Origin: Pyropia yezoensis
Lineage: Eukaryota; Rhodophyta; Bangiophyceae; Bangiales; Bangiaceae
DNA length: 64,000 nucleotides
NCBI GenBank assembly: GCA_009829735.1
Contig: CM020620.1
Location: 21,984,020-22,048,019 of the forward strand
Direction: 5' to 3'
Below, piece after piece: positions 34,111-53,904 of this stretch. Each line of letters starts with the position of its first letter. Within the stretch, counting starts at the first letter, position 1. A model generated the notes under the pieces. It did no database searches. It was given only the letters and a program-made list of their open reading frames with translations, and was not told the DNA's origin. Made by a program: the position numbers and the translations under genes.

Positions 34111-34112
34111 GT

Positions 34113-34130: not shown

Positions 34131-34427
34131 GAGGATATCGACTTTGGTACCTCCCTTGACCGGAGACGGGACCAAGTTGGCCCCTCTCCCCCTTCGGCAC
34201 CGAGACTTCCGGTGACACGATCGACTCGCCTACGTTCCCAGCGTTCGCTGGGTGACGAGGTTGGCCACCGTGAGTCTTGGTGGGAGACCCGGAGTTTCGG
34301 GAAACCTCACCGCCTTCCTTGAGGTAGGTGGAGGGGTGGAACGTGCTCTAGGAACTCCCTAGCTGACGATCCCCGACTCTGGACACCGTTTGGTCGTTTT
34401 GGTTGACTCCACGTGACTCTTGTGGAG

Positions 34428-36227: not shown

Positions 36228-37138
36228 TAATGAAGCGGGTTGCTTCACACTCACCGACCCATGGGAGAGTGAAGGTCCTGACTCGACCTCGAGGGGTGAG
36301 GCCGAGAGACAAGGTCCCTCCTCAGAAGCACGACCCGAGTCGGATTGTGTCAGTGCTGGTAGGGAGTAACTACCAGGTCGCAGCTCGACTCTGGCTGCAG
36401 GATGGATATGAGTTTACCTCTCGTGTCATAGTCGACACAGGCTCTGCTGCCTCTCTCATTAGGCAAGACTTATTGCCAGAGGGGACGGATGTGAGTCCCG
36501 CCGGCTCACCCGAGTGGCGTATGTTTGATGTCAATGGGGGACTCCTCCCCATTGTTGAGTCTATTGCATTGACTGTTTGCATTGGGTTCTACCAGACGCA
36601 GGTGAACTTTGGAGTAGTCTCCAATATGTCAGTTCCCGTACTCCTGGGAACTGACTATCTGGACCTCCATGTCCCGGCCGTCTGTGGACCGGAAGGGGTA
36701 ATCCGAATGCGTAATAAAGAGACTGTCCCCATATTGCGTAAAGGGAGGACTATTTCCCCTACGACTCATCAACCTAGGGAAAACTCTCCCAAGGGTGGAG
36801 GCTCTACGACCCATGTACGAGTATGTAAGGGTACGGTAGTCCCGCCCCAATCAAGGACCTTTGTGCGAGTACGCACACGGTTTCGAGGGAATGGACTCGT
36901 TTCCCCCGTGGACCGAGTCTATCATACTCACCAAGTGCAAGTTGCCTGGGGCCCCATGACTTGTGGGGATGACCAAACTTGGTGGGTGGAGGTCCTCAAC
37001 ACGTCGGAGGAACCTCGACGACTCCCCGGAGGCATGAAGATTGCGTCGATCTCTACCTTTGAGGGGAATGTCGTTGCTGTGACTCAACAGCAATGGAAGG
37101 ATATTGGAACGGCAGGCTCTGCCGACCAATCGAGTTAA
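36182..37138 (+). CDS. Element 1 retropepsin-type protease
   Basis: Read in the -1 frame from the slippery site; an internal ATG is at 36230. The catalytic Asp is in VIVDTGSAASLI and the flap-to-end region has VPVLLGTDYLDLHV, the usual partner motif of gypsy proteases. A 150-residue C-terminal extension follows and ends in TAA (37136-37138). Pol continues in the SAME frame after this stop, so the join would need stop readthrough; alternatively the TAA is a mutation. In Element 2 the two frames differ. Confidence 0.85.
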   Translation, partial: KRLAAGTKTDPKAPAVMKRVASHSPTHGRVKVLTRPRGVRPRDKVPPQKHDPSRIVSVLVGSNYQVAARLWLQDGYEFTSRVIVDTGSAASLIRQDLLPEGTDVSPAGSPEWRMFDVNGGLLPIVESIALTVCIGFYQTQVNFGVVSNMSVPVLLGTDYLDLHVPAVCGPEGVIRMRNKETVPILRKGRTISPTTHQPRENSPKGGGSTTHVRVCKGTVVPPQSRTFVRVRTRFRGNGLVSPVDRVYHTHQVQVAWGPMTCGDDQTWWVEVLNTSEEPRRLPGGMKIASISTFEGNVVAVTQQQWKDIGTAGSADQSS

Positions 37139-40100
37139 TCGACGGCTAAATCGCCGACGGTACATCGGGAGAACATCCCGGAGTGTTTACATGGACGACT
37201 GGATGAGTTAATCCAGAAGCATCACAAGTTGTGGAATGGTGACCTTGGGCTCATCAAGGCCACCGAACACAGAATCGTGTTGAAGCCAGGGGCTAGGCCA
37301 GTTCGCCTGAGTCCCTACCGTATGGGACCAGACTCACGGGAACTCACCCGAGAGCAGGTCCAACGGATGCAAGACATGGGTGTCGTTGAGCCTTGCTCAA
37401 GTGAGTGGGCCAGTCCCATAGTCTTGGTGCCCAAGTCAGACGGCACGATGCGGTTCTGCATCGATTATCGTAAGCTAAACGAGCGGACGGTAAGGGATAG
37501 TTACCCCTTACCCCGTATGGACGATTGCCTCGACTCACTCGGTGAGGCACAGTACTTTTCCACGTTGGACTGCAACGCGGGGTACTGGCAGATGCCCATC
37601 CGCAAGGAGGACAGACACTTGACCACCTTCACGTGTCACTGTGGAGTTTATCAGTGTACACGGCTCCCTTTCGGGCTTTGCAATGCACCTGCGACTTTCC
37701 AGCGTGCTATTGACTTGATACTTGCCGGAGTCAAGTGGCAGATCGCCCTGGTGTATCTGGACGATATCATTGTGTTCTCCGGGACTGCCGAAGAACACCT
37801 GTCCCACTTGGACAGAGTGTTTATCCTGTTGGGTGAAGCAGGAGTAACACTCAAACCTACGAAGTGTCACCTCTTTAGTAATGAGGTGGAGTACCTCGGC
37901 CATATAGTCCGGCCAGGTCGCATTCTGGTCAATGAGAAGAACCTCATGGCCATCCGTCGGGCGAAGTTCCCCCAGACGCAGACACAACTCAGGAGCTTCC
38001 TGGGTATGTGTAACGTATACAGACGCTTTGTGGCAAACTATGCCAAAGTGTCTGCACCGTTGAACCACTTGGTAAGTTCCAAGATGCCCAAGCGCTTGGA
38101 TGCTCCCAAACCCCCGGAGCAAGAAGCGTTTGATAGGTTGCGAGAGCTCCTCTGCAACCCACCGGTGTTAGCGATCCCCAGACCGGGGGCTCACTACATC
38201 GTTGATGTGGACGCAAGTTACGACCAACTTGGTTGTTGCTTACTCCAACAACAGCCTTCGGGGGAGTATTTACCCGTTGGCTACTTTAGCAAAGGACTCT
38301 CACCGGCCCAGAAGAACTATTCTGTGACGGAGGTAGAGGGCCTTGGCGTAGTATGGGCAGTCTCCATGCTACGGCCATACATCGAAGGAAGGAAGTTCCT
38401 CATTCGATGTGACCACAAGGCTTTGAAGTGGATACTCACCACTACAGCCTGTACGAATAACCGGCTCAATCGATGGCGACTCTGCCTCGCTGAGTTCGAT
38501 CATGACGTTGAATATCGGCCAGGCCCGAAGCATGCGGTTGCGAACGCGTTGTCTCGCATACCGACGGATGGGAAAGACTCTTCCCCCATCCCTGAGGAAC
38601 TCCCTCATGTGGCAGTGACCACTCGCTCCGGAACTGTCCTCGACCCGAGGATGCCTGGCACGGCCAAGCTATTACCCGTGTCTCTGGATGAGTTTGTCCA
38701 GGCACAGGAGAGCGACAAACTTTGTCGACGACTCAGGAAGGAGCTCGACCAGGCTCAACCGACTCGGTTCTTCCTGAATGACAACGGCATACTCTGCCGT
38801 AAGGGATATACCCAGGGGGACAAGCAAGTCGTCGTCCCCAAGGAGTTACGCAAGAGTATCCTCCAACGGGAGCACTCCTCACCGTTGGGTGGACACCCAG
38901 GGTCTACGAGGATGTATCAGACCCTACGCAAGAAGTACTATTGGCCATCACTCGTGGCTGATGTGTACGGGTATGTAGCCGCATGCGCGACTTGCGCAAA
39001 GAATAGACTCATGGAGTCCGGGCAGACTTCTTCCATGAGACTCTTTCCTGCAACAGAGCCGTTTGCAGCGATAGCAGTGGACTTACTCGGTCCACTACCA
39101 CGAACACCTGAAGCATATGAGTAACTTCTGGTGATGTGTGATCGCTTTACTAAGCTCACACGGGTATCCCCACTCAAGGATATCACAGCCGTGGACGTTC
39201 TGAGTGAGTTACTCGACGTCTGGGTTGCCAGTTATGGCATCCCCGACTCTATCCTTTCGGATAACGGACCACAGTTTGCGTCCGTCCTGTATCAGGGAGT
39301 CATGAAGATGTTGGGGGTGCAGACGAATTTCGCAACCCCTTACCACCCCCAGACTAATGGGCAGGTGGAACGATTCAACAGGACTCTAGTGCGCCAGTTG
39401 CGTCACTATGTCCATGACCATGTAGTCACATGGGCTCGTTATGCGTCACTACTCGTGACAGCATACAACTCCCAGGTACAAAGTAGTACGGGAGAGGCAC
39501 CGTTTGCCTTCGTCTGCCCCCGACGACTTCCGTCAGTAGCTGTGGAGCGTCTCACCCAGACAGAGGGTGAGACTTCGACTCAAACACCGAGTCAGGCGAA
39601 AGCCTCCCTACTCCAGAGACTGGAGGAGATGATACCCCTTGTCCGGGCTACTATGGAGAAGGCCCAAGCTCGTTACAAGAGGTACTTCGATGTCCGAGTC
39701 AGACATCGTCGCGATCCGCTCCGAGTTGGAGATTGGATTTATGTCAACTCCCACGACAATAAGGGAGGGAAATTGGTCTTCAAAACTCTGGGACCATATC
39801 ACATCCTTAAGACGGATGGACGGCGGTTAACCATCGAGAGTGATGATGGTATCCGGACGATAAATGGGAATCACGCGACTCGCGCACCCGAACCCCCAGA
39901 GGGAGATCCGCTTGGGAAAGGGCCTTGCAAGCATGGAAAGTCCCATTCTTGCCGACCTCCTCCAATAAACCGTTAGAGGCGGTGTTCGACAAGTTTGTCG
40001 GACACAGATACGATGAGTCGGGGCGACTCATGCTCCGAGTCAGGTGGTTCGGGTATGGACCAACTTCCGACACATGGGAGTTTGTAGAGGACCTACCAGT

Positions 40101-40218
40101 AGAGAAGGTCCGTAGATACTGCCAGGCTGCGGGCATATCTACACGCCGACGTAGCACTCGTACGTCGAGGGATGAAGTCCTTGCTCCAAGTCAGAGCAGA
40201 GCGGCAAGCCAACCATGA
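37139..40218 (+). pseudogene. Element 1 pol: RT, RNase H, integrase, chromodomain (disrupted)
   Basis: Homology to Element 2 pol starts at RENIPECL near 37178. RT has FCIDYRKLNERT and YLDDIIVFS, RNase H has VDVDASYDQLGC and CDHKALKWIL, and the integrase zinc finger ends in CATCAKNR. A TAA at 39122-39124 interrupts the integrase core between the first catalytic Asp (AVDLLGPLP) and ILSDNGPQF; Element 2 has a Tyr codon there. A frameshift around 39920-39940 then puts the chromodomain (LRVRWFGYGPTSDTWE, to 40218) in another frame from the integrase, whose frame ends at 39976. With both lesions this copy cannot make a full integrase. Confidence 0.9.
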
Positions 40219-40346: not shown

Positions 40347-42263
40347 CTAGCGTTCCATATGCCCACCCCCACCACTATAGGGACCGCCCGACCACGAACC
40401 CCCAGGGTCGTAGGCCGGTAGCGGAGGGGCGTAACCCACTCGGGAGGGCCCCGGAGTGGAAGAACTGGGAGGGGCCCGCCGACTCGCGGACCCATCCCCG
40501 TCGTAAGAGAGATGTCCGGAGGTACTCCCTCCGTGACGCGGAAGCTGCTGCTGAGTCGACAGCAGCCGTTGGACAAACTCGTGTCCAACCGCGAGGCGAG
40601 TGACCTCAGCTGCCAATGACTGTCGCGCCGTGGCTGAGTCGCCCGACGCGAGGAAGTGACTGACGCGCCGGGTGACCCAAGCCAACGTGTCAAGAGAGGC
40701 CACGAGTGAGGCCTCCACCGTGGCGTCATACATGATGGCTCCCAAGTTGGGAAGCATCTCGCCGACGCCACGCGCAATCGGCATCGGGACCGGAGTTCGG
40801 ACCCGTAGCGAACCCAACGCCACGTCGGGGAAGGGTTCGAGGAACTGGAAGGGTGGAGCCTGAGTGGGCTCCACACCCCCCGAGGTCAGAGTCGCGACCC
40901 GCGGGGAAGACGTCGGCACAGCTCGCCCGCGGCTTCGAGGGGCTCCTCGATGAGCACCACGACGAGTCGTCGCCGATGACGTCGCCCACCCAGAGCCAGG
41001 GGGCGACGTAGAGGGAGTAACCCCCTCCGCGTAGGGAAGGGAAGGGTCCCCCAACCCCTCACGCAGGAGCAGCTGCCCCTGCACCAGAGTATGGGTGACA
41101 TGGACGAACTCCCGGGGTGGCTCACTCTCCAACCCCGGCTCTGAACGCTTGTTGCGGCGGAGGAAGGGGTCCAGCTGCGCCCAATCGAGTCGATTGTGCA
41201 GGGTGACCATACCCTTGAGGAGGAACGGAGCCAGGTCCCCCGCGCCCAAGGCTAACCACTGGAAGCCAAGGGTTTCCATACCCTCCACCAGAGCCGGTGG
41301 GAGGTGCCACAGGTAATCCCGATGGACTACATCGGAGTACCAGCCCCGAGCCACCACGACCACCCAGTGCGTGGCGAGGTAGGCGAAGACCCGGTTGCCC
41401 TCCGAGCTGGAGCGTAGCACGGAGCCAAAGTAGGCAACGAGGAGGGGGATCCGAGCCGGAAACCCACAAGGTACCTCCACTGACTCCCACCACCCTGGGA
41501 GAAGAGGGTACTGTTGCTCACGCTCCTCCAGAGGTACGTGGGTGAACTCCACCCGCGACCCGTGGATGAGGAAGCCCGAGGAGCCCCGGAGTCGGAACTC
41601 CTCTCGCACCACACCGTGTTGGGCGTGGGCGTCCTCTCCGCCCAAGTAGGGACGAGGAAGGGCACACCACTCGGTAGACACCACCGCGTGGGTGTCGTCG
41701 ATCTCCACGTCGCCCGACCCCATGGCGAGGGAGGTTGACAACGCCTGGACTTCAGGCGCGTCCGCCAGGCAGAGTAGCGCTGGTAGGTCGCAGACCACCC
41801 CATCAGGTAGAGTCACCTGGTTGGGGTACCGACGAGTCCGGCGGTACCATACGTCGGTCCGCCGTGGCTCGGGGATGATCAAGTAGACATCCTTGAGCTT
41901 GCAGTCGGGAAGCTCCCCGACTGACTTGGGGGGCGCCCAGGCTCGGGGCCCCATAGGAGGACGGGGCCGCGGCGGGAGTAGCAGACGCGACTCAGGAAGG
42001 CGGGGGATGGGAGTCACATCCCCTTCCGCCACCGGGTTGGAAGACCCATCCCCCGGTGGGACCACAGCCGAGGGGGCAGTAGGAGGTGATGGAGCGGGGA
42101 CGGCTGAGGCGGCCGCCTCCGACCCTCGCCCGGGACGAGTCGTCTTCATGGCCGACCCCCGGCTGAGAGACTCCTCAGTCCCGAGGGCCTCCTCTCCCGC
42201 CCGTCGCTTGTCCGACAGAGACGTCGGGGACGGGGACAAGGGCCGACTCGGCCCACCCGCCAT
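40347..42263 (-). CDS. Element 1 antisense protein, unknown family
   Basis: A 638-residue frame with an ATG start at 42263 runs opposite to gag-pol and ends 128 bases from the chromodomain stop. I do not recognise it. It has a Pro/Ser-rich N-terminus, then a globular part with VEVPCGFPARIPLLVAYF (about 261), LATHWVVVVA (about 297), WHLPPALVEGMETL (about 321) and LHNRLDWAQL (about 357). A Pro/Ser/Thr linker and a helical part (ASLDTLAWVTRRV, about 525) follow. The same blocks occur in the same order and at nearly the same positions in the antisense frame of Element 2. It is intact although pol of this copy is broken. No signal peptide or catalytic motif is seen. Confidence 0.72.
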   Translation of the reverse strand: MAGGPSRPLSPSPTSLSDKRRAGEEALGTEESLSRGSAMKTTRPGRGSEAAASAVPAPSPPTAPSAVVPPGDGSSNPVAEGDVTPIPRLPESRLLLPPRPRPPMGPRAWAPPKSVGELPDCKLKDVYLIIPEPRRTDVWYRRTRRYPNQVTLPDGVVCDLPALLCLADAPEVQALSTSLAMGSGDVEIDDTHAVVSTEWCALPRPYLGGEDAHAQHGVVREEFRLRGSSGFLIHGSRVEFTHVPLEEREQQYPLLPGWWESVEVPCGFPARIPLLVAYFGSVLRSSSEGNRVFAYLATHWVVVVARGWYSDVVHRDYLWHLPPALVEGMETLGFQWLALGAGDLAPFLLKGMVTLHNRLDWAQLDPFLRRNKRSEPGLESEPPREFVHVTHTLVQGQLLLREGLGDPSLPYAEGVTPSTSPPGSGWATSSATTRRGAHRGAPRSRGRAVPTSSPRVATLTSGGVEPTQAPPFQFLEPFPDVALGSLRVRTPVPMPIARGVGEMLPNLGAIMYDATVEASLVASLDTLAWVTRRVSHFLASGDSATARQSLAAEVTRLAVGHEFVQRLLSTQQQLPRHGGSTSGHLSYDGDGSASRRAPPSSSTPGPSRVGYAPPLPAYDPGGSWSGGPYSGGGGHMER

Positions 42264-42369
42264 CTTGAATAACCTTGACCAACTCGGTGAGGTTGAGCAC
42301 GGGGGGGGGATACGACCCGCTCCCCCTCCTTGACCGCCACCAGGTTAACTCAACCTGGGCCTTGAACAA

Positions 42370-42690
42370 CAGGGGGGGGACACGACCCACACCCCCCAAC
42401 GACAACAAGAAGCCCGACACAAGGGGCAGCGCGGGGAAAACACAACCCCGCCGACGAAGAGCAACAAGGGGGGGACACAACCCACGCCCCCACCGACAAC
42501 GAAGACGCCCGACACAGGGGCAGGGAGGGGGAAGACACACCCCCCAACGACAACAAAGAAGCCCGACACAAGGGGCAGCGCGGGGAAAACACAACCCCGC
42601 CGACGAAGAGCAACAAGGGGGGGACACAACCCACGCCCCCACCGACAACGAAGACGCCCGACACAGGGGCAGGGGAGGGGAAGACACCAC
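42370..42690. repeat. 151-bp tandem duplication in the Element 1 3' region
   Basis: GGGGCAGCGCGGGGAAAACA occurs at about 42422 and 42573. The following block, with CGACGAAGAGCAACAAGG and ACCGACAACGAAGACGCCC, is repeated almost unchanged, with a partial third unit upstream. It lies between the antisense gene start and the 3' LTR. Confidence 0.85.
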
Positions 42691-43406
42691 CCCAAGCGGC
42701 GACACAAACCGCACGGCGGGAAGAGACAGACCCGCCGACGCGAGGGAGCAGCGGCGGGAAGACACACACCCGCCCGCACACACGAAGGGGAGAGAAGACC
42801 CCGCACCGGCGGCCGAGTACCACCGCCGGCGACCAAAAGCAACACCCCCAAATCGGGGTGCGCACACCCCTCAACCCTGACTAGAAGGGGGGGGGAAAGG
42901 AGTGAGGAACACCCCGCAGAGAGCCAGCTGGGGGTGCATCGAGCTCTAAGGGGGGGACACAACCCGACCCCCCGAGAGCAACCGTACCCCAACTGAAGGG
43001 GCAGGTGCAGGTCGACGTTCCGAGTGAGAACGTCGACGCCCTACTCCTCCAGTTGAGGGGCAGGCGGTGTGGCGGAGGAACGCCGACACCCAGGTTAGGG
43101 GGCCCACCCACACAGGAGTCCACCCGTGGAGCACCCTGACCAGGAGGGGGACGACTTTCCCCCACACCTGTTTCGCGTGGAGGGGGCTCCTCTACCCAGG
43201 TTAGGGCAGAGAGCGCACCCCACGGAGAGGGACTGCCTCTCCCGGAGGGCTCCGCCGGACGCGAGTGCAACCCCGGCGTAACCCTGGTGCACGCTAGACG
43301 CCAGCGATGCACCGTACTTTGCATCCCGACTCGGGAATTGCATCCTCCTCTCCCGGTCACTGCGACTCGCGGCTGATTGGACGTCCACCGGGACGGCTGG
43401 ACTTTT

Positions 43407-43419
43407 GAGAAGGGGAAAA
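43407..43419 (+). other. Element 1 polypurine tract
   Basis: GAGAAGGGGAAAA directly precedes the 3' LTR and would prime plus-strand DNA synthesis. Confidence 0.9.
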
Positions 43420-43958
43420 TGTGGGAGATTGGGCCGGAATTCGGTACCAATACTTTGGAGATTCGGGTCAAGTGGACCTGACCGGAAGTCGAAATTCACC
43501 CGACCCACGATGGTGAAACTTCTGACTTCTGGACGGAAATTCGACTAGGACTTCCGACATACTAGAGCAGGGTAATGCTGCTGGTATTTGTTTCTTGGGA
43601 TTTTTGCACGGGAGCCAGACGGATTTCTACGCTTTGAGTGCTTTGCATGTGGAGTGATATGATTTGTTTGTTTGAGGGTTCATTTTCTGAGTGTTTTGAG
43701 GGGTTGCGTGAGCGTGTGAGGAGGGTTGATAAGGAGGGACAGCAAGGCGGGGAGGGCCCACCTTGGCTGGCCAAGCAAGTAAACACCGTCTGGCTCCGAC
43801 ACATCTTGTTCGTGCCTTGGTGAGCTGACCCGTTCACCACACGCAAGTTCCGTGTTTGGCTGTGTGGAGGTGCTTGCTTCCGGTGTCCCAAGTTGGGATA
43901 TCGGCAATACTCCTCTTCCTTCCCTGACTCGGGGTTGGTGGTTGGGAGTACTGCTACA
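43420..43958 (+). repeat. Element 1 3' LTR
   Basis: 539 bases, TG to CA, nearly identical to 33572-34110. It is followed at 43959-43963 by the GAGAG duplication. Confidence 0.95.
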
Positions 43959-44253
43959 GAGAGCCCCCCCGCCCCTGCGACTGCTGCTCCTGTCCGCGAC
44001 ATCTCTTCCACGGCCACTGCAGCCCAGATTGCTGCACGCACACCGGAGCGCAAGAAGGCCAAGAAGGATACTGCCGTGGGGCTCCTCCGCGACTACCTGG
44101 AGAGCAAGCGCCACGCGGAACAGACTAGCGGGGAAGAGGGTGGGACGTCCGCCACTGATGTGCGCGAAGCGCTCGTCAATATGATGAACGCGTACGCAGA
44201 GATGGCGCGTCGTGGTCTGTGTGTGGGTAACTGGATTTGATGGCGGGGCGCAC

Positions 44254-44824
44254 TGTAGCATCCCTGGCCCCGACTTGGCGCCGACCCGGGACTACAACCA
44301 GAGGGCACCAGGTGCCAGAACACGCCCGCCGTGTGGTGATGGTTGGCGGCCGTGGCCCGTGCCCGGCACTGGGATGCGGTGGACTACGCTATCCACACGT
44401 GAGAGAGGGATTGCTGATGGGTTTTTGCATACTTGTGAGGGACTTGATTTGAGAGAATTTGAGTGTGAGATTAGTGAGTGGGAATAGAATTAGTAGTGAT
44501 AGTGGCCCCCGACCTGACGAGGTTAGACTCGGGTCGGGGCCACTCGGGGTTATGGGGGGGCTACCTGGCCAACGTGCCGAGGCTCCCCCAGATGCACGTT
44601 AAGAGGGACAGCGAGGCGCCCTTGGCCCGCGCCCTCAGGAAAAAGACAACTGCGCGTGTGCTTTCCTCTTCCCCGTGTGCACTACCGTGCGTATCTGTTT
44701 GCTCTGCGAGCAGGCACGTGAGGCAACAGGCATACCATTCTCGTAGTTCCCCTTTCTATGTTACCTGTCCCTTTCCCCCGAGGGATATTGACACGTGTCT
44801 GAGAGGATCGAGTTTTATACCACA
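44254..44824 (+). repeat. Element 2 5' LTR
   Basis: 571 bases, TGTAGCATCCC to TATACCACA. It differs from the 3' LTR by about four substitutions and one T-run length change. It begins 13 bases after the stop codon of the interrupted gene. Confidence 0.93.
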
Positions 44825-44828
44825 TATT

Positions 44829-44845
44829 TGGTGGAGCAGCAGGGG
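44829..44845 (+). other. Element 2 primer-binding site
   Basis: TGGTGGAGCAGCAGGGG begins 4 bases after the LTR. It starts TGG as expected for a tRNA 3' end; the tRNA is not identified. Confidence 0.6.
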
Positions 44846-45036
44846 ATGATTGGAGTGTTTGAGAAGAGACATTTGGGAGCAGCGGTTGGGTTGTTCCTGT
44901 TCTGTCTTTTTCTGTGGTTTGGGAATTATTTGCACCCGTTTACGGGAATCCCATTCCTGGCTCTCCAACCCCTCTCTTGTGGTCTGGCGATCTTTGGACA
45001 CGCAGGCAACTGGACTGTGGCTGTCAAGAGACCAAC

Positions 45037-46797
45037 ATGGCTACCCTCCCTGGCACGACGGTGCCCGAAGGGGTAGACCCCGCGTCCCTTGACGCATCCC
45101 TGGTCACCGCGGGGGACGGTGCCCAACCCGGCGTTCTCCCTACGGGTGAAGCAGACCTGGGTGTGACATCCGGTAGCGGACTGGAGTCCACAGGCGGCCA
45201 AGCACCACCTGCTCCCGTTCCTCCGGCCTTTCCTCCTGTGGGAGCCACCCCGGGGTCAACGGCGTTTGAGTCCGCTCGCAGCAGACGTCTCCCTCCTGTC
45301 GGTTCTACTCCTCAACATCCAGGGATAGCCCCTGGTGTGTTTACTCCTGGACACACACATGGCAGTTGGGTGTATACACCTCTTCCTGTGGGCACTAGCG
45401 ATGCCAGAGGCACCGTTGTGACTGGTTCTACGGGTCTCCCTGAGACCTCGACTCCTGGGACCGGCCAAGCTTTTCCTCCCCTTGCATCCTATGGGGCGGG
45501 GAGCTCCAAGACCGGTATCCGGAGCAGCCGAAGGCGTCGGCGTCATCGCCGTCGCTCTAGCACCAGCGAGACCAGTTCCTCCAGCTCTGAGGAGGGATAT
45601 GATTGGGATGCATCTCCCGGTCCCACCCGGCGCAGGCTAGTCGAGTTTGACTTCCCTGCCCACCAAGTGGGAGATGCCACCCTGAACAAGGTCACGTATT
45701 GGGGTAACTACCGGCTGGAGAACCAAGACCAAGGTTACACCCGGAAGATGGCCAAGAAGATGGCGTCCCTGAACCGGCGAATGCAGCCGAGCTTCGGGGG
45801 ACATCCTAAGTTTTCCGGGAAGAGACCGGCGCTTATCTTTGCCTTCCTGCGCCGGTTTGTCAAGGCATGCAATGACAACGATGTGTCCGAGGGCAAGGCT
45901 CTCTACCTCCTGGTTAACTTCATGACCGGAGAAGCGGAACAGCGGTTTGCACAGGTTCTACCAGACTCTACCGGACACATTGTCGGACGTACCGTCGCGA
46001 GTTATCCTGAGGCGGTCAACTGGCTCCTGTCCAACTACGCTGACGCGGACTCTCTGCGTAAAGCAGTCGGCAGGCTGAACCGGGCAACCATGGAAAGACA
46101 AGAGACTCCAGAGGCGTTCGCCCGTCGTGTCCGGGAGATGAGCGATGCTTGTGGCAACGTTTACCCTGAGGACAGGCTCAAGATGATCTTCTCGGAAGGG
46201 CTTCCTGAATATCTTCAAGTGGATGCGGAGAACTACAACCAGGAACATCAAGAACATACCTTCCAGCAATTGATGGCCTACACCCAGGGCAAGTACCGGC
46301 AAGCCAGGGCCCTCCAAGCTCCCATGGTATCATCTCCCAAGCCGTTGTCGCGAGTTCGACCCGGACCCGACAAGTATAAGGGAGGTGATAGCCCTGTACC
46401 AGTACTCGCAGTTGGGGAGGCCTCACCCATGGGGTCAGGGGACAAGTGGGGCGGCTTCGTTTCTGAGGAGCAACCATCCCTGGTCGCCCCCAAGCAAGTC
46501 AAGAACCAGCGGTTCCGGTCTTGTTGGCTGCGCCAGAAGGAGGATCACATGTCCTACCAGTGCCCGACCATTCCCAAGGACCTCCAGGAGAAACTCAAGC
46601 GTCAAGGACTGGTGTTTGCAAAGGCGGTCAACTGGGCTGACCGGCGGGCGCCCTCCAAGATGGACAAGGCACAGGTACATGCAATCCGAGTGGCAACCTT
46701 ACAGGGCATCACGAAGGCTCTGGCAAGGGAAGCTCCTACGGACTTAGACCTGGAGACCGAAACCTCTAAGGACTCCTCGGACCCGGGAAACGAGTAG
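45037..46797 (+). CDS. Element 2 gag, with altered zinc knuckle
   Basis: 586 residues from the ATG at 45037 (CCAACATGGCT). A Pro/Thr/Gly-rich N-terminus, an Arg-rich patch (RRRRHRRRS) and the capsid region (IFAFLRRFVKACNDND, then LLVNFMTGEAEQRF, then AVNWLLSNYADADSL) parallel Element 1 gag. The nucleocapsid knuckle near residue 497 reads CWLRQKEDHMSYQC: the second of three Cys is Arg (CGC at the TGC position). This single change should weaken zinc binding in this copy. The C-terminus ends GGA AAC GAG TAG. Confidence 0.92.
   Translation: MATLPGTTVPEGVDPASLDASLVTAGDGAQPGVLPTGEADLGVTSGSGLESTGGQAPPAPVPPAFPPVGATPGSTAFESARSRRLPPVGSTPQHPGIAPGVFTPGHTHGSWVYTPLPVGTSDARGTVVTGSTGLPETSTPGTGQAFPPLASYGAGSSKTGIRSSRRRRRHRRRSSTSETSSSSSEEGYDWDASPGPTRRRLVEFDFPAHQVGDATLNKVTYWGNYRLENQDQGYTRKMAKKMASLNRRMQPSFGGHPKFSGKRPALIFAFLRRFVKACNDNDVSEGKALYLLVNFMTGEAEQRFAQVLPDSTGHIVGRTVASYPEAVNWLLSNYADADSLRKAVGRLNRATMERQETPEAFARRVREMSDACGNVYPEDRLKMIFSEGLPEYLQVDAENYNQEHQEHTFQQLMAYTQGKYRQARALQAPMVSSPKPLSRVRPGPDKYKGGDSPVPVLAVGEASPMGSGDKWGGFVSEEQPSLVAPKQVKNQRFRSCWLRQKEDHMSYQCPTIPKDLQEKLKRQGLVFAKAVNWADRRAPSKMDKAQVHAIRVATLQGITKALAREAPTDLDLETETSKDSSDPGNE
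46785..46791 (+). promoter_or_regulatory. -1 ribosomal frameshift heptamer GGGAAAC (gag to protease)
   Basis: G-GGA-AAC is in exact gag register, one codon before TAG, the same place as in Element 1. Slipping -1 leads into the protease frame, which is open with no stop from 46791 to 47936. No close stem is obvious; a stronger hairpin (CTCCC/GGGAG) lies about 65 bases downstream. Confidence 0.72.
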
Positions 46798-47936
46798 GGC
46801 AGGCGCTCTCCCCAAGTGTCTTCCCGAATCTCCGACGGCAGGGTACTTCTACCCGTTCTCCCCTTGCGTACCGGGAGAAAGGACGGCGGTTACCTGCTCA
46901 ACCGGTAGCCGCCTGGACACCCTGTGTGTTCGAGGGGACATTGCTCGTCCTGCGTAAAGAAAACCTCAAGATTAATGCTCGTATGCGTGTGGGGGATAGC
47001 CTCCCCCAAGCTGTTACGCCGGTGGTTGACACGGGAGCCGGACCAAGCGTCATCACTGAGAACCTGTTACCTCCGGGCTGGCGTCGACATGCCTGGAGAG
47101 CGCCTACCCGGACCCATATCGTCGACGCTTCGGGTCAAACCCTACGACCGCTTGGCCGTCTTCCTGTCGCCATCTATGTCAACAATGAACCAATGCTTTT
47201 TCCCTTTCTAGTAGTCAAGACCCTATCAGTCCCTCTCATCCTAGGCTGGGACTTCCAGAAGCAGCATGTCAAGAGCATCCTACCCGGAGAAGGGAAGGTC
47301 CAGTTCAACCATGGGTTTGTGTCACCGGTATTGGAACATCTGGACGCCAAGGTTCGTGTAGCCAAGAGCAAGAGGGAACGCATCCCACCCTCTACCTTGA
47401 CTCTCTTCAAACCGGTGCTCCTACCTCCTCGCTCGGAGACCAAGGTTCAAGTAACGACCCGGATTGCAGGTCAATACCTGATCTACGGACGTAAGGAATT
47501 TCTGGCGAAACACCGGTTATACTTGGCCCACGGACATCACAAGAAGGTAGAAAGGCACACCCCGTTCTCGGTGCTAATCGTCAACGTGAGCCGGAAGCCA
47601 ATAACCCTCGCCAAGGGCACCCGAGTTGGTACAGCAGAGCCTTACCGGGGATCCGCCCGTGCTATGAGCAAGGAAGACCTCCTGAACCTGCAACAAGAAC
47701 TGGCATCCAACTTGACGGCCTTAAGACGTACCTCCGAAACAAGAGCAGGCTGGCAGCGCTACTCCGAAACCCGAACAAGCACCACCCGGGATGCCGAAGG
47801 TCAAGCAAGAAAATGTCCCTCCCGACTTGAAGGAGGCACTGGAGAAGCTTCTCCAGGAATATCGGCACCTGTGGTCGGGAGAGCTGGGCAAGATGGACGC
47901 CACTCTACACCGGATTCAACTCAAGCCGGAAGCTAA
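46791..47936 (+). CDS. Element 2 retropepsin-type protease
   Basis: Read in the -1 frame after the slippery heptamer. The catalytic motif is PVVDTGAGPSVI (about residue 78 of the frame) and VPLILGWDF is the downstream protease motif. A long Lys/Arg-rich extension follows. It overlaps pol by 146 bases in another frame, so pol needs either a second frameshift or initiation at its own ATG (47791). Confidence 0.87.
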   Translation, partial: RVGQALSPSVFPNLRRQGTSTRSPLAYREKGRRLPAQPVAAWTPCVFEGTLLVLRKENLKINARMRVGDSLPQAVTPVVDTGAGPSVITENLLPPGWRRHAWRAPTRTHIVDASGQTLRPLGRLPVAIYVNNEPMLFPFLVVKTLSVPLILGWDFQKQHVKSILPGEGKVQFNHGFVSPVLEHLDAKVRVAKSKRERIPPSTLTLFKPVLLPPRSETKVQVTTRIAGQYLIYGRKEFLAKHRLYLAHGHHKKVERHTPFSVLIVNVSRKPITLAKGTRVGTAEPYRGSARAMSKEDLLNLQQELASNLTALRRTSETRAGWQRYSETRTSTTRDAEGQARKCPSRLEGGTGEASPGISAPVVGRAGQDGRHSTPDSTQAGS

Positions 47937-50886
47937 GCCAGTGCACATGCGACCATATCGGGCCGGACCTCATCGCCGGGATGAGATTGAGAAGCAGGTT
48001 AACAAGATGCTCAAGATGGATGTTATCGAGCCGTCTGATGGCGAGTGGGCTTTCCCGGTGGTAGTCGTCCCGAAAACCGGCGGTCACTTCCGTTTCTGCG
48101 TTGACTACCGGCGCCTGAACGAGATGACAGTCAAGGACGTATACCCGATACCCCGGATGGATGATTGCCTCGACTTTCTTGGTGATGCCACCCTCTTCTC
48201 GACGCTGGATTGTAATGCCGGTTACTGGCAGATCCCTCTGGCTGACGAGGACAAGGACAAGACCACCTTCACGTGCCACCTGGGACTATTCCGGTGCAAG
48301 CGTCTTCCTTTTGGTTTCACCAATGCTCCGGCGACCTTCCAAAGAGCCATCGACATCATCCTGTCCGGGCTAAGGTGGAGAACATGTTTGGTCTACCTGG
48401 ATGACATTATCGTTTTCTCCAAGACCCCAGCGGAACACCTGGAGCACCTTCGGGAGGTCCTGGCCCTCCTGTCCAAGGCTGGAGTTACCCTCAAGGCCGA
48501 GAAGTGCCACCTGTTTGAGAATGAGGTGGAGTATCTGGGGCACGTGCTGAGTCCGGGGGAGCTCCGAGTCAATGAGAAGAACATCAAGGGCCTCCGGCAT
48601 GCACGGCAACCCAAAACCCAGACGGAACTCAAGAGCTTCCTGGGTATGTGCAACGTCTATCGCCGGTTCGTACGGGACTATGCTCTGATTGCCCGGCCAC
48701 TGACCAAGCTGACCAGCAAGAAGCTTCCCGCACAACTCCCGGTGTTCGACGAGAAGCAGACCGCGGCCTTCGAAGAGCTCAAGAAGCGCCTGACCACCAC
48801 TCCAGTACTGGCGTTACCCAAGCGGGAGGGCCAGTTTGTTCTGGAGACGGATGCCTGTGGCGTCCAGGTGGGGTGCTCACTACTCCAGCAGCAACCTGAT
48901 GGGCACTTTCTCCCGATAGGCTACTACAGTCGCGTCTTGACTCCAGCTGAGAAGAACTATTCCACGACCGAGCGCGAGTGCTTGGCAGTCGTCTGGGCTT
49001 GCTTCCTGTTACGGCCATATCTTGAAGGACAAGGGTTCCTCATCCGGACGGACCACGCCAGCCTAAGGTGGCTGCTATGTATGGACAGCAGTCAAGGAAG
49101 GGTCGCCCGGTGGCGCCTACGCCTTTCGGAGTTCAAGTACAAGGTGTGCACCAGAGCAGGGAGGGAGCACCACTGCGCCGACACCATGTCCCGGCTGGAG
49201 ACTCCTGCAGCCGATACCGGTCCTATCCCGGAGGAAATACCTTGCTTCATCCTCCCGAATGTCGGACGTGGCTGGCACGCTCCCCTGTATGAGACACCTG
49301 AAGCTCATCAACCGGTGACCATTCACCGGATGCTGGAGGCACAACTGACGGACCCTCAATGCTTGGAGCTTCGCCACCAAGTGGACCTGAACCGGAACAG
49401 TCGTTTCTCCGAGTCTACGGACGGACTCCTAGTACGGGTGTCACCCTTCGATGGGGCCACTCAAGTCTACGTACCCCGGGGCCTACGAGCTGACATCCTA
49501 CGCCTGGAGCACTCGTCTCCCCAGGCCGGACATCCTGGTATCAATCGGATGTATGCTTCCATGAGACGACACTATTACTGGGAAACCATGGCCAGTGACG
49601 TCCATAAGTACCTGGAGGCTTGTGTTTCTTGTGCAAGGAACCGGTTGTCCCAGAGGCAGAAGACTTCTAAGCTACGCCTATTCCCTGCGGCGGAGCCCTT
49701 TGCAAGCTTAAGCATGGACATCCTGGGGCCCCTACCTGAAACATCCAGTGGCAACATATACCTGCTCATCATTTGTAACCGGTTCTCCAAGTTCACTCGA
49801 GCAATCCCGCTGAGGACCATCACGGCTCTGGATGTCACGTCAGCCTTCTGCGAGTACTGGATAGCTGCCTACGGCCCTCCAGACTCCGTCTTAACCGACA
49901 ACGGTCCCCAGTTTGCATCCCTGTTCTTCCAAGGAGTCTGTGACCTGATGGGCATCAAGAACTTGTACACTACGACGTACCACCCTCAAACGAACGGCCA
50001 GGTGGAACGATTCAACCGGACCCTAGTAGACATGCTACGGCACCACGTGGAGGAGCACCAAGAAGACTGGGACGAGCTCCTGGCTGTCCTCACTCTAGCC
50101 TACAACTCCCGAGTTCACCGGACAACGGGGCTCGCTCCACTCGACTTTGTCACCCCAAGGCGGCTGACCAACTTCTCCCTGGAAAGGATACCAGACGGTC
50201 TCCAGCCTGCACTGAAGTCAGGTCCCAAGGCAAAGGATGAGTTCTTGGAACAACTGAAGCTCCTGCTCCCAACAGTCAAGGAGTCAATCTCGAAGACCCA
50301 GGAGCGATACAAGCGGGGCTATGACAAGGGCGTTCGGGAAAAGAACAAGGAACTGGGTGGTGGCGACTGGGTTCTTGTGGACAACCATAGCAAGACCCGG
50401 GGGAAGCTGGACTCGAAGACGGATGGACCTTATGAGATCCTGAATACGGACGGTTGGACCTTTCTTCTAGACGTGGATGGCTCCCCGTACCGCGTGAGCA
50501 GCGACCATGTCACCCGAGCTCCACCGCCAAGCCAACGGGACTTGACCCGGCGCAAGCGGGCCGCAGTACCCTGGCTATCCCAAGAAGCAGGTCGGGAATA
50601 TGTCTACGTCAAGTTTGTGGACCATGCCTGGAGAGACGGACGCCTGTACCTGCGAGTACGCTGGTTCGGTTTTAACCCGGCAGATGATACCTGGGAACCC
50701 TCAAACCGGCTACCCATCGCGGATGTCTGTGCCTACACGCGACGGAACGGGATAGAGGGCACTCCAGTGGCCAGAGCCGGCAAGATTCTGGAGTCGGACT
50801 CGGAGGAGTACCAAGAGGATGGGGCCAACCAAGACCCTCGGGACGAGCCGAGTTCATCCGCAACGGATGCGGAACAAGAGGATTGA
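47791..50886 (+). CDS. Element 2 pol: RT, RNase H, integrase, chromodomain (intact)
   Basis: 1031 residues. RT at about 70-260, with FCVDYRRLNEMT and the catalytic YLDDIIVF near 203. RNase H at about 345-465 (LETDACGVQVGC, TERECLAVVW, RTDHASLRWLL). The integrase HHCC finger starts at LEHSS near 572 and ends CVSCARNR near 610. The DDE core has MDILGPLP (about 641), LTDNGPQFAS (about 701) and NGQVERFNRTL (about 737). A C-terminal chromodomain (FVDHAWRDGRLYLRVRWFG, then DDTWEP, about 938-985) could steer integration to marked chromatin. All catalytic residues are present. Confidence 0.96.
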   Translation: MPKVKQENVPPDLKEALEKLLQEYRHLWSGELGKMDATLHRIQLKPEAKPVHMRPYRAGPHRRDEIEKQVNKMLKMDVIEPSDGEWAFPVVVVPKTGGHFRFCVDYRRLNEMTVKDVYPIPRMDDCLDFLGDATLFSTLDCNAGYWQIPLADEDKDKTTFTCHLGLFRCKRLPFGFTNAPATFQRAIDIILSGLRWRTCLVYLDDIIVFSKTPAEHLEHLREVLALLSKAGVTLKAEKCHLFENEVEYLGHVLSPGELRVNEKNIKGLRHARQPKTQTELKSFLGMCNVYRRFVRDYALIARPLTKLTSKKLPAQLPVFDEKQTAAFEELKKRLTTTPVLALPKREGQFVLETDACGVQVGCSLLQQQPDGHFLPIGYYSRVLTPAEKNYSTTERECLAVVWACFLLRPYLEGQGFLIRTDHASLRWLLCMDSSQGRVARWRLRLSEFKYKVCTRAGREHHCADTMSRLETPAADTGPIPEEIPCFILPNVGRGWHAPLYETPEAHQPVTIHRMLEAQLTDPQCLELRHQVDLNRNSRFSESTDGLLVRVSPFDGATQVYVPRGLRADILRLEHSSPQAGHPGINRMYASMRRHYYWETMASDVHKYLEACVSCARNRLSQRQKTSKLRLFPAAEPFASLSMDILGPLPETSSGNIYLLIICNRFSKFTRAIPLRTITALDVTSAFCEYWIAAYGPPDSVLTDNGPQFASLFFQGVCDLMGIKNLYTTTYHPQTNGQVERFNRTLVDMLRHHVEEHQEDWDELLAVLTLAYNSRVHRTTGLAPLDFVTPRRLTNFSLERIPDGLQPALKSGPKAKDEFLEQLKLLLPTVKESISKTQERYKRGYDKGVREKNKELGGGDWVLVDNHSKTRGKLDSKTDGPYEILNTDGWTFLLDVDGSPYRVSSDHVTRAPPPSQRDLTRRKRAAVPWLSQEAGREYVYVKFVDHAWRDGRLYLRVRWFGFNPADDTWEPSNRLPIADVCAYTRRNGIEGTPVARAGKILESDSEEYQEDGANQDPRDEPSSSATDAEQED

Positions 50887-51031
50887 GAAGAAGGGAACGG
50901 GTATATCAAGGAGAACACGCAATACAAGCATGGAACAATCAAGGAAAACAAGCACCCGCTCGGGCAACCCTTCTCTCCGCCTCTTCCCTCCTCGCTTCTC
51001 CCAAGACCCTCACCCTCCTTGCCTCCAACTA

Positions 51032-53149
51032 CTACTCCCGGCGCGGACGCTGAGCCGCGGGAGTGTCCTCCAGCGCTGCCTCCGCGGCACGACGGGAACC
51101 GGAGGAAGACGGGATGACGTAGTGCTGTGGACGCGGTGCATCCCGGTATGACGCCATCGGAGTAGTACCGGTAGTTGCCGGGGGCTCCCGCTCATCCAGA
51201 TATGCCCGTCGGTGCCCCTGGAAGCCAGTGAAGGTTTCTGACCACTGCTGGGCCAAGCCATGCCGCGTCAAGGTCGCCAGAAGTTCGCCAACCACCGGGC
51301 TGTTCGACATCTGGCCGCTGTCCGCGCAAGCAAACACCCGGTCGACCACGTTGTTCAAGACGCTGGCGTAAGTACCCAGCACCAAGGAGGACCCAACGCC
51401 TTCAACCTGCACCGGAAGACGACCCAGCTGGTCTTCAATCATACCGACGTCGTACTGGTCGCATGTCGGACCACCTTGGATCAGGTACCAGTCAGGCACC
51501 CGGAAGCGGGTAAGGCGCAGAGTCGGCGCCGGAATCTCGAACCGCCCCGAGGATGACACCACCGGACGGTCCACAACGGCCCCCGAAACCGGAGTACGCA
51601 ACTCCAGCGGAGGCACAGCGCCGCCGGCGTTGGAAGAAGGCGTCCGAGGCGGAGCGGCCGGAGTGGTAGGCGACCGCACGGTCACCCCCAGACTCGCCGC
51701 AGACAGGCGCGGGGCCGGAGGAGCTTGAAGTGCCGGCACAGCCGGAACAGGGCGTGAACGCGCCGGCGACGGTTCAGGCGAGGCCACCGGGGCGACAGGT
51801 GCAACAGGAGGAAGCGGAGCCGCCGCAGACGCCTGACCGACCGCCGCGGCCCATCCCGACTCCTGCACCGGCGGCCCAACTGGCAGAAGATCAAGGGCGG
51901 CCGGGGCAGGAAAGCTACCTAGCTGCGGCCACGCCGGAAGCGGCGTCGCCAGCTGCACCTTGGCCGGAGAAGACTGGTAGACCACCTGCGCCCAACCGAA
52001 GCCATCCCGACGCGGGCGGTTCTGGTCGGCAATCGCGTTCAAGAAGTTCCGGTCATGCACCGGCACCAGACGCCGGAAGTCAATCATCGCCTGGAAGAGC
52101 CCCTTGTACTCTTCGTCCTGGCTGCACAGGAAGTCGACGGTCAACTTGTCGACAATCCAGACCATCAGGAGGTCAGGGAGAAACCAAAGCCGGTTGGACA
52201 CCAAGACCTCGTGAAGCCAGTGGTTGGCCGCCAAGACTGTCATCTCGGACGTGTACATCATGTATGGGATCGAGTGGAAGAAGCCCTTGATTGACGCCTG
52301 AGTCAAGGCGTCCAAGAAGTACCAGGTGAAGGGGATGCTGGAAGGAGCAAACCCGACCGGGATCTCGACTTCCTGCTGCTGCGGGATGACCTTGGGGTAG
52401 TACGCCGCCCGGTTAGCCTTATCCAGCTTCCAGAACTCCTGATGGTTGCAGCTCACGAGGAAGTCACGCTGACGGCCGCGTCGCTCGCCTTGCTCCCGTG
52501 CCGGTGACAACTTGGAGTACTTCCGGGTCAGGAAAGGCGGCTCCAGAGCGACCATGCTCGGACGGGGGTCGCAGTTCAGGCTCCCCGACCCCTTGAGCGC
52601 CTCGTCCCAGACCTTGAGCGCCCGGTGGACGTACCCTTCCTCCTCCGGCCACCGGAGAACGGACGCGGACACGCGACGCTCGGTCAAGGGCAGATCCAGC
52701 TCCAGCGCGAAGGGGAGATCCTCCAGACGAGCAACCCAAGAGGAACCCGAGAAGCTCTGGGAGCGGTCTTGTGCCAGGCGCATCTGGTCCGCCGTGTGAA
52801 GACGAGCCTTATCCATCTCTGTCAGGACCCCGCGCTGGAGTTCCTTGCGCCAGAGGTCCAAGCAATCCTGCTGGCACTGGGCCGCGCCGGCGTTGCCGAC
52901 CACCGTGGAGTAACGCCGGGCCGCCAGAGGGTCCTGCCCAAGAAGCATCTCCGGGAGACCCACCGGGGGGGTCTCGACCGGGTGCATCACAGAAGCCGGG
53001 GGAACCCGATCCGTCCCCGCCGTGGCGACCGGCGCCGACATCGACACCCGAGGAACCGGAGGCAGGAGAGGGGCGCGACTACCCGAGTTCTCCTCCGCAA
53101 CACTCGCCGCCGGAACCACGGGCCCAGCTTGGATCTCGGAACTGGACAT
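51032..53149 (-). CDS. Element 2 antisense protein, unknown family
   Basis: 705 residues from the ATG at 53149 (MSSSEIQAG), opposite to gag-pol and ending 145 bases from the pol stop. It is not recognised. It has a mixed N-terminal domain (CLDLWRKELQRGV, LPFALELDLPLTERRV), then VEIPVGFAPSSIPFTWYF (about 260), LAANHWLHEVL (about 305), WFLPDLLMVWIVDKL (about 323) and LVPVHDRNFL (about 360). A long Ala/Pro linker and a C-terminal helical block (YASVLNNVVDRV) follow. These blocks are collinear with the antisense protein of Element 1. A near-identical copy is at 61476-63593. The frame is open further upstream in the second copy but not here, owing to a small indel near 53200. Confidence 0.75.
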   Translation of the reverse strand: MSSSEIQAGPVVPAASVAEENSGSRAPLLPPVPRVSMSAPVATAGTDRVPPASVMHPVETPPVGLPEMLLGQDPLAARRYSTVVGNAGAAQCQQDCLDLWRKELQRGVLTEMDKARLHTADQMRLAQDRSQSFSGSSWVARLEDLPFALELDLPLTERRVSASVLRWPEEEGYVHRALKVWDEALKGSGSLNCDPRPSMVALEPPFLTRKYSKLSPAREQGERRGRQRDFLVSCNHQEFWKLDKANRAAYYPKVIPQQQEVEIPVGFAPSSIPFTWYFLDALTQASIKGFFHSIPYMMYTSEMTVLAANHWLHEVLVSNRLWFLPDLLMVWIVDKLTVDFLCSQDEEYKGLFQAMIDFRRLVPVHDRNFLNAIADQNRPRRDGFGWAQVVYQSSPAKVQLATPLPAWPQLGSFPAPAALDLLPVGPPVQESGWAAAVGQASAAAPLPPVAPVAPVASPEPSPARSRPVPAVPALQAPPAPRLSAASLGVTVRSPTTPAAPPRTPSSNAGGAVPPLELRTPVSGAVVDRPVVSSSGRFEIPAPTLRLTRFRVPDWYLIQGGPTCDQYDVGMIEDQLGRLPVQVEGVGSSLVLGTYASVLNNVVDRVFACADSGQMSNSPVVGELLATLTRHGLAQQWSETFTGFQGHRRAYLDEREPPATTGTTPMASYRDAPRPQHYVIPSSSGSRRAAEAALEDTPAAQRPRRE

Positions 53150-53320: not shown

Positions 53321-53332
53321 GGGAGGGAGCTA
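53321..53332 (+). other. Element 2 polypurine tract
   Basis: GGGAGGGAGCTA directly precedes the TG of the 3' LTR. Confidence 0.8.
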
Positions 53333-53904
53333 TGTAGCATCCCTGGCCCCGACTTGGCGCCGACCCGGGACTACAACCAGAGGGCACCAGGTGCCAGAAC
53401 ACGCCCGCCGTGTGGTGATGGTTGGCGGCCGTGGCCCGTGCCCGGCACTGGGATGCGGTGGACTACGCTATCCACACGTGAGAGAGGGATTTCTGATGGG
53501 TTTTTGCATACTTGTGAGGGACTTGATTTGAGAGAATTTGAGTGTGAGATTAGTGAGTGGGAATAGAATTAGTAGTGATAGTGGCCCCCGACCTGACGAG
53601 GTTAGACTCGGGTCGGGGCCACTCGGGGTTATGGGGGGGCTACCTGGCCAACGTGCCGAGGCTCCCCCAGATGCACGTTAAGAGGGACAGCGAGGCGCCC
53701 TTGGCCCGCGCCCTCAGGAAAAAGACAACTGCGCGTTTGCTTTCCTCTTCCCCGTGTGCACTACCGTGCGTCTCTGTTTGCTCTGCGAGCAGGCACGTGA
53801 GGCAACAGGCATACCATTCTCGTAGTTCCCCTTTCTGTGTTACCTGTCCCTTTCCCCCGAGGGATATTGACACGTGTCTGAGAGGATCGAGTTTTTATAC
53901 CACA
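53333..53904 (+). repeat. Element 2 3' LTR
   Basis: 572 bases, matching 44254-44824. It is followed directly by inverted Element 1 sequence and not by a copy of the 5' flank. Confidence 0.93.

What the first reader, a model, noticed from the sequence alone, without database searches (positions are those of the whole stretch)
40347..53149. Conserved antisense gene in two different Ty3/gypsy chromovirus families
Both Element 1 (40347-42263) and Element 2 (51032-53149, copy 61476-63785) carry a long minus-strand frame between pol and the 3' LTR, convergent with pol and separated from it by 128-145 bases. The sense proteins and LTRs have diverged strongly, yet the antisense proteins share blocks in the same order at about the same residue numbers: VEVPCGF/VEIPVGF at 260, HW at 297/305, WHLP/WFLP at 321/323, LHNR/VHDR at 357/360, then a variable Pro-rich linker and a helical end. 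I do not recognise the family. A conserved accessory antisense protein in chromoviruses of this lineage would be a new retrotransposon component: a movement, capsid or regulatory protein, or an antisense control of gag-pol.
Basis: partly seen in the sequence, partly recalled or inferred. Interest (0 to 1): 0.88.

Follow-up and report, generated by a model that had tools for sequence, protein, structure and literature searches.

The report
Antisense accessory gene in algal retrotransposons
Several families of jumping genes in what is probably the nori seaweed genome carry an extra gene on the opposite strand, kept by natural selection, that makes a protein of unknown kind and probably helps or controls their copying.

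Summary
Both Ty3/gypsy elements in the window carry a long open antisense frame between pol and the 3' LTR, convergent with pol, and the two proteins are homologous. In the same genome I found two further families with an antisense frame convergent with pol, making at least four chromovirus-like families (A-D), each with tens to over a hundred copies. Relatives are encoded in Pyropia vietnamensis and in unnamed public contigs. Variants shared between copies are mainly synonymous, about as in pol; variants seen in one copy are near neutral in two of three copy sets. So the protein, not only an antisense RNA, appears selected in copies that transpose, though over all variants less strictly than pol. 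Only a core of about 130-210 residues is conserved across families. It matches nothing in Pfam, NCBIfam or PDB sequences and shows no similarity to the elements' Gag. The architecture is known: antisense accessory ORFs occur in plant Retand/Grande elements and in a fungal element. The plant TRP28 domain was not detected here. Verdict: a new variant of a known kind, a separate, old, selected antisense gene of red-algal chromovirus-like elements. Best reading: a soluble nuclear accessory or regulatory protein; the nuclear and regulatory parts are inferred by analogy.

The parts
33572..34111 (+). 5' LTR of element 1 (family A)
   Evidence: BLASTN self-match to 43420-43959, 540 bp, 99.4%; a 5-bp GAGAG flank is seen by eye on both sides of the element
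34413..36191 (+). element 1 gag
   Evidence: ORF 592 aa; zinc knuckle PF00098 just below its cut-off
36230..40218 (+). element 1 protease-RT-RNaseH-integrase-chromodomain region; in this copy there are in-frame stops (between protease and RT, and in the integrase core) and a later frame change
   Evidence: ORFs 36230-37138, 37229-39124, 39131-39976; RVT_1, RNaseH and H2C2 hits; frame survey
40347..42263 (-). element 1 antisense accessory ORF (aORF), 638 aa; conserved core about residues 180-385
42364..42695 (+). tandem repeat array (about 149-bp period, 2.1 copies) between the aORF start and the 3' LTR of element 1
43420..43959 (+). 3' LTR of element 1
44246..44824 (+). 5' LTR of element 2 (family B)
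   Evidence: BLASTN self-match to 53325-53904, 98.6%; TG start at 44254
44914..46797 (+). element 2 gag, 627 aa
   Evidence: 31% identical to E1 gag over the alignment; no Pfam hit at E<=0.01
46926..50886 (+). element 2 protease, RT, RNaseH, integrase, chromodomain-like end
   Evidence: RVP; RVT_1, RNaseH, H2C2, rve; Chromo below its cut-off
51032..53149 (-). element 2 antisense accessory ORF, 705 aa; conserved core about residues 185-375
53325..53904 (+). 3' LTR of element 2; the aORF ATG lies about 180 bp inside it
61476..63785 (-). aORF of a second, partly assembled element 2 copy (open frame extends into the LTR)
   Evidence: 500 bases of N at 59156-59655

Best explanation
It is a protein-coding antisense accessory gene (aORF-3R type) of a lineage of chromovirus-like Ty3/gypsy elements in a red alga. 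Shown: an antisense ORF convergent with pol in four families, mapped between pol and the 3' LTR in E1 and E2; proteins of 638-789 aa with a conserved core, Pro-rich low-complexity N-terminus or linker and no membrane segment; selection on the reading frame among variants shared by copies. Inferred: it is transcribed from its own antisense promoter in or just inside the 3' LTR, translated separately from gag-pol, and works in trans in the nucleus, binding element DNA/RNA or host chromatin factors to regulate sense-strand expression or the handling of the cDNA/pre-integration complex, much as is proposed for Grande GENE23 and Retand TRP28 proteins.
For: Core homology: A-B, A-C, B-C and C-D beat all 1000 shuffles; A-D p=0.002, B-D p=0.009; profiles. 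Convergent layout in D locus L048 and C locus L043. Copies, as lower bounds: 63 scored (B), 137 matches to the A core including fragments and 12 of family C, 102 (D), 116 (C). Among these best-scoring copies, no stop inside the matched stretch in 47 of 63 B, 91 of 102 D, 116 of 116 C; frame changes are not counted there. In 16 E2 copies picked by 117 bases of intergenic DNA, not by protein, shared variants are 14 N:17 S against a neutral 21.4:9.6 (ratio 0.37, P=0.005); pol 0.39; single-copy aORF variants 0.92. Protein-ranked sets: shared ratios 0.19 (20 B) and 0.37 (20 A). dN/dS between subfamily members 0.14-0.40. A and C are closest both in integrase (62%) and aORF (40%). Maximum 19-residue hydropathy 1.23-1.54. 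Precedents: GENE23 is reported nuclear with its own promoter; TRP28 is predicted to bind DNA.
Against: No transcript, promoter, localisation or structure evidence was obtained (structure jobs failed). Over all variants the aORF is less constrained than pol in the unbiased set (0.74, P=0.048, against 0.41), and pol single-copy variants are also constrained (0.43), so aORF function may be less strict or not needed in every copy. Single-copy aORF variants in the B set are not neutral (0.61), which the protein ranking of that set could cause. Three of four proteins have pI 6.3-6.8 and few basic runs; only family C has clear basic clusters, so a nuclear role is not written in the sequence. No known DNA-binding domain was found. 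B and D cores do not match in direct profile comparison. The nuclear and regulatory step rests on analogy with plant proteins to which no homology was shown.
Confidence: 0.5

Rival explanations
1. The antisense transcript, not the protein, is the functional product: convergent transcription or dsRNA limits sense expression (copy-number control); the ORF is incidental.
For: Convergent layout in the four families read; antisense RNA control is proposed for other elements.
Against: Shared substitutions follow the aORF reading frame (0.37 of neutral N/S, P=0.005 in the unbiased set); protein-level homology persists between families; open frames of 638-789 codons in GC 0.64-0.68 DNA where other frames have 7-24 stops. 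An RNA role in addition to the protein is not excluded.
Confidence: 0.08
2. A structural protein: a second capsid or particle component, or an envelope/movement-like protein made from an antisense message.
For: Size, Pro-rich linkers and conserved core would fit a particle protein; the position before the 3' LTR is where env-like genes sit.
Against: Profile comparison with the elements' Gag (two sequences) gives probability 0.10 and 0.24 of 100; no zinc-knuckle pattern or transmembrane-strength stretch; no Pfam match. Without a fold a diverged capsid is not excluded.
Confidence: 0.15
3. A captured host gene or a nested second element that happens to be carried along.
For: Gene capture is known for LTR elements.
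Against: Same orientation next to pol in four families, with A and C closest in both integrase and aORF. The own-genome matches come in multicopy sets, but few were read and the lists are capped, so a single-copy host homologue is not excluded. The origin stays open.
Confidence: 0.07
4. A nuclear accessory protein homologous to the plant TRP28 domain, so diverged that profile search misses it: one ancient antisense gene of archaeplastid Ty3 elements.
For: Same position and orientation; [quoted passage not shown] A resemblance around GFP...FG...L, recalled from memory of TRP28 proteins, is a lead only.
Against: No PF04195 match at E<=10 in 8 full proteins and 5 core pieces (the filters drop most weak matches); TRP28 is reported only in flowering plants, in non-chromovirus elements. 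The whole-genome PF04195 search is uninformative because its control rang nowhere.
Confidence: 0.12

Closest known systems
Retand-lineage antisense ORF with TRP28 domain (PF04195), plants (PMC11963269, passages seen)
   [quoted passage not shown] tandem repeats in the same region in about half; presumed regulatory role
   Different: Retand is a non-chromovirus lineage of flowering plants; TRP28 is not detectable here; the host here is probably a red alga and integrases of A, B and C end in a chromodomain-like region
Grande gene23 (maize) and RIRE2 aORF-3R (PMC7264820, parts 1-2 of 3 seen)
   Same: Antisense gene between pol and 3' LTR, conserved across copies; GENE23 is reported nuclear and driven by its own promoter
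   Different: No sequence comparison was made (no sequence in hand); different host; promoter and localisation not tested here
Boty of Botrytis cinerea (named in PMC7264820)
   Same: Antisense ORF between pol and 3' LTR outside plants
   Different: Protein not compared; paper on Boty itself not seen
Retroviral antisense genes such as HBZ of HTLV-1 (as summarised in PMC11963269)
   Same: Antisense gene of an integrated element; nuclear protein
   Different: No homology tested; analogy of layout only

Membership tests
aORF-3R class (antisense accessory ORF between pol and 3' LTR) | Long ORF antisense to gag-pol, between pol and 3' LTR | tested here: met
   E1 and E2. D: ORF order in L048, homology between two D copies ends at L048:6133, LTR itself not mapped. 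C: convergent next to integrase in L043, LTR not mapped
aORF-3R class (antisense accessory ORF between pol and 3' LTR) | Present and conserved in most copies of the family | tested here: met
   Of 16 E2 copies chosen by intergenic DNA (16 of 40 listed), 16 keep homologous aORF sequence next to pol, 13 over the whole 488-codon part, and 8 of 16 have that part without stop or frame change; the 500-codon pol part is without stop or frame change in 10 of 16. A: 16 of 20 whole ORFs intact; B: 18 of 20, both chosen by aORF rank
aORF-3R class (antisense accessory ORF between pol and 3' LTR) | Antisense transcription | not testable with these tools
   no RNA data reachable
Retand / TRP28 (PF04195) | TRP28 domain in the antisense ORF | tested here: not met
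   0 of 8 proteins and 0 of 5 core pieces match at E<=10; own-genome search uninformative, control silent
Retand / TRP28 (PF04195) | Non-chromovirus Ty3/gypsy element of flowering plants | tested here: inconclusive
   Against: chromodomain-like end in A, B and C (below cut-off) and the only named relative is Pyropia vietnamensis.
Chromovirus (Ty3/gypsy with chromodomain) | RT, RNaseH, integrase order and integrase C-terminal chromodomain | tested here: inconclusive
   RT-RNaseH-IN met in E2. Chromo PF00385 hits at E 0.0005 (B), 0.0001 (C), 0.0036 (A), all below the curated cut-off of 25.1 bits; D part searched has no hit at E<=0.05. No RT tree made
Env-like accessory ORF | Sense orientation and transmembrane segments | tested here: not met
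   antisense; maximum 19-residue hydropathy 1.23-1.54
Gag/capsid | Similarity to Ty3/gypsy Gag or zinc knuckle | tested here: not met
   hhalign probability 0.10 and 0.24; no CCHC-type pattern; fold not compared

The most novel reading that the evidence does not exclude
The antisense protein is a third essential gene of a whole clade of red-algal chromoviruses, founding a protein family with no known relative, expressed from its own antisense promoter and needed in the nucleus for successful transposition. Antisense accessory genes would then have arisen, or been kept, independently in at least two deep lineages of Ty3/gypsy elements, pointing to a general two-strand gene programme in LTR retrotransposons.
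Probability: 0.35. Interest if true: 0.75.

Novelty: new variant of a known kind. Interest (0 to 1): 0.55.

Why it matters
Antisense accessory genes of LTR retrotransposons are described mainly in flowering-plant elements and their function is unknown. A second, apparently unrelated family in chromovirus-like elements of what is probably a red alga, with codon changes showing selection on the protein during transposition, argues that such genes do a real and repeatedly useful job. Several young, high-copy families in one compact genome make the question testable by strand-specific RNA and protein localisation.

Tried and rejected
Pfam, NCBIfam and PDB-sequence searches of the aORF proteins: empty. 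Homologue searches in the large protein set: one relative of the E2 aORF, four of the E1 aORF, six with an eight-member profile; in each only about 8000 word-sharing candidates were scored, and only one hit is named (Pyropia vietnamensis). tblastn of the E2 aORF in phages: none. Structure prediction failed for reasons of the service, so no fold comparison was made. The PF04195 whole-genome search was uninformative. A bacterial-type promoter scan of the 3' LTR found 0 and is not relevant to a eukaryote. Similarity of C-terminal regions between families: not significant in 5 of 6 pairs. The first pol control for E1 against L047 (dN/dS 0.97) ran into a frame change and was replaced by the in-frame part: 12 N and 3 S in 223 codons, ratio 1.36, no sign of constraint in that pair; E1's pol carries stops. 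The C pair gave 0.18 in integrase against 0.14 in the aORF part. The first count on the 16 unbiased E2 copies (aORF pN/pS 0.91, pol 0.55) included non-homologous flanks in 4 copies; those stretches were masked (identity under 80% to the window in 60-base windows) and the count repeated (0.44 and 0.29). The mirrored sense frame gives nearly the same pN/pS as the aORF (0.45), because codon positions mirror; it is excluded as coding by its 13-24 stops in four families. Copies L001-L040 were chosen by aORF protein rank, which favours low N, and include the window's own copies; the conclusion rests on the unbiased set and on shared variants. Two of those 16 (L058, L062) lie in loci of the first set and L061 matches one of them over the stretch compared. 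Literature: the rows listed (part of the hits in most) show no paper on antisense genes in red-algal LTR elements; the library lacks most subscription journals. Seen: PMC11963269 passages; PMC7264820 parts 1-2 of 3; PMC6317226 term search only, no hits; all others as search listings.
Full report
What is there. The window holds two adjacent LTR retrotransposons. Element 1 runs between LTRs 33572-34111 and 43420-43959; element 2 between LTRs 44246-44824 and 53325-53904 (TG starts of the E2 LTRs at 44254 and 53333). A second element 2 copy is cut by a run of N at 59156-59655. Element 2 encodes protease, RT, RNaseH and integrase with a weak chromodomain match. Each element carries one long minus-strand ORF after pol: 40347-42263 and 51032-53149, with a copy at 61476-63785. 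The pol-to-aORF gap is 128 bases in E1 and 145 in E2. In this E1 copy the pol region has an in-frame stop between protease and RT, one in the integrase core, and a later frame change, while the antisense frame is open.

Is it more than chance? The two proteins align by BLASTP at E=7e-10; with masking 47.0 bits against a best of 28.9 bits in 200 shuffles. Core-to-core scores exceed all 1000 shuffles for A-B, A-C, B-C and C-D, with p=0.002 for A-D and p=0.009 for B-D. Profile comparisons give probability 93.8 (A+C against B) and 86.7 (A+C against D). B against D directly gives no profile match in the core, only a Pro-rich stretch at probability 3. In one element of each of four families the aORF frame has no stop while the five other frames have 7-24.

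How widespread. The genome that holds the window is 107.5 Mb in 11 contigs, three of 43.6, 34.3 and 29.4 Mb. From memory this fits Neopyropia (Pyropia) yezoensis; no call names it. Family B: 63 scored copies, 47 of 63 with no stop inside the match. The E1 core finds 137 matches, some of them fragments: most at 94-98%, others at 74-92%, one at 69%, one at 52%, and twelve at 34-37%; three of the twelve were read and form a third family, C. A search with C gives 116 scored copies, 116 of 116 without a stop in the 350 residues matched. A fourth, D: 102 scored copies, 91 of 102 without a stop in the 410 residues matched. Only the best candidates are scored, so counts are lower bounds and favour intact copies; frame changes are not counted. 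L048 shows a D element with pol, then the convergent aORF (825 codons open, 789 aa from its ATG); homology between two D copies ends at L048:6133. L043 shows C with integrase and convergent aORF. LTRs of C and D were not mapped. Elsewhere: P0002 (97%), P0003 (59%), P0004 from Pyropia vietnamensis (57%), P0005 (50%), P0006 (55%) and P0007 (96%). Whether those relatives lie in elements was not checked.

Is the protein selected? I compared codon changes among copies. To avoid choosing copies by protein similarity, 16 E2 copies were taken by a 117-base intergenic stretch (16 fetched of 40 listed). After masking non-homologous stretches in 4 of 16 copies, pN/pS is 0.44 for the aORF part (488 codons) and 0.29 for the pol part (500 codons). 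The other frames of the aORF region lie at 1.07-1.31, except the mirrored sense frame (0.45), which has 13-24 stops in the four families. Against a neutral placement of the same substitutions, variants shared by two or more copies are 14 N:17 S (expected 21.4:9.6; ratio 0.37; P=0.005); pol gives 0.39. Single-copy variants give 0.92 for the aORF and 0.43 for pol. The protein-ranked sets (20 B, 20 A copies) give shared ratios 0.19 and 0.37, and single-copy ratios 0.61 and 0.92. Between subfamily members dN/dS is 0.36, 0.24 and 0.32 (three A pairs; 0.40 for the core of one), 0.14 (C, part of the ORF) and 0.38 (D). So changes that passed through transposition are filtered at the protein level, and single-copy changes are close to neutral in two of three sets. 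Over all variants the aORF is less constrained than pol (0.74, P=0.048, against 0.41). In the unbiased set the aORF part is free of stops and frame changes in 8 of 16 copies and the pol part in 10 of 16.

What the protein is. Four proteins of 638, 705, 647 and 789 aa have Pro-rich N-termini or linkers and no stretch of transmembrane strength; pI is 6.8, 6.5, 9.5 and 6.3, and only family C has basic runs that look like a nuclear signal. The shared part is a core of about 130-210 residues; the C-terminal parts are not significantly alike except B-D at p=0.013. An LLPPxPR motif before the core is seen by eye in A, B and D. Nothing known matches, and it shows no profile similarity to the elements' Gag. 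No fold could be predicted.

How it most likely works. Shown: an antisense protein gene next to pol in four families, selected. The simplest history is that it predates their split: integrase identities are A-C 62%, B-C 50%, A-B 43%, D 32-37%, and A-C is also the closest aORF pair (40%); the other aORF pairs are 24-26%, or too short to rank (B-D, 28 residues), so the rest of the order is not tested. Inferred: transcription from an antisense promoter in or just inside the 3' LTR (the E2 start codon lies about 180 bases from the LTR, the E1 start about 1.16 kb away with a tandem array between), and action in trans as a nuclear accessory protein that regulates sense expression or the fate of the cDNA. 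The inference leans on Grande GENE23 (nuclear, own promoter) and Retand TRP28 (predicted DNA binding) as reported in PMC7264820 and PMC11963269.

Known or new. [quoted passage not shown] This protein family and its presence in chromovirus-like elements of a red alga were not found in the listings of the searches made. The TRP28 domain was sought and not found. Hence: new variant of a known kind. Chromodomain assignment rests on hits below Pfam's cut-off, and no RT tree was made.

An oddity. E1 and L047 differ little in integrase (12 N, 3 S in 223 codons) but strongly in the aORF (64 N, 66 S, dS 0.13), as if the 3' region had been exchanged between subfamilies by recombination.

Noticed in passing
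window 39131-42263 against L047: Family A copies E1 and L047 are much closer in integrase (15 changes in 223 codons) than in the aORF (130 changes in about 637 codons), suggesting exchange of the 3' region between subfamilies.
   Followed up: partly
L045 (own genome C2:31242900-31246600): A family A aORF lies beside an integrase that looks by eye like that of family D, with a run of N between them: recombinant element or assembly join.
   Followed up: no
window 10748-12502 (-): ORF with Tf2-1-like SH3 and (just below cut-off) chromodomain matches: another Ty3/gypsy family, with internal repeats at 11829-12564; whether it carries an antisense gene was not examined.
   Followed up: partly
window 54725-55516 (-): 263-aa ORF with a weak match to the transposase family DDE_Tnp_1_7 (E=0.02, below cut-off); a PiggyBac-like origin is recalled, not tested.
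   Followed up: partly
window 5246-6745 (+): 499-aa ORF that looks by eye like a Myb/SANT-type protein; no Pfam match at E<=0.05.
   Followed up: partly
family C copies: Dozens of copies with the same bit score to the query across all three large contigs, as after a very recent burst of transposition.
   Followed up: no
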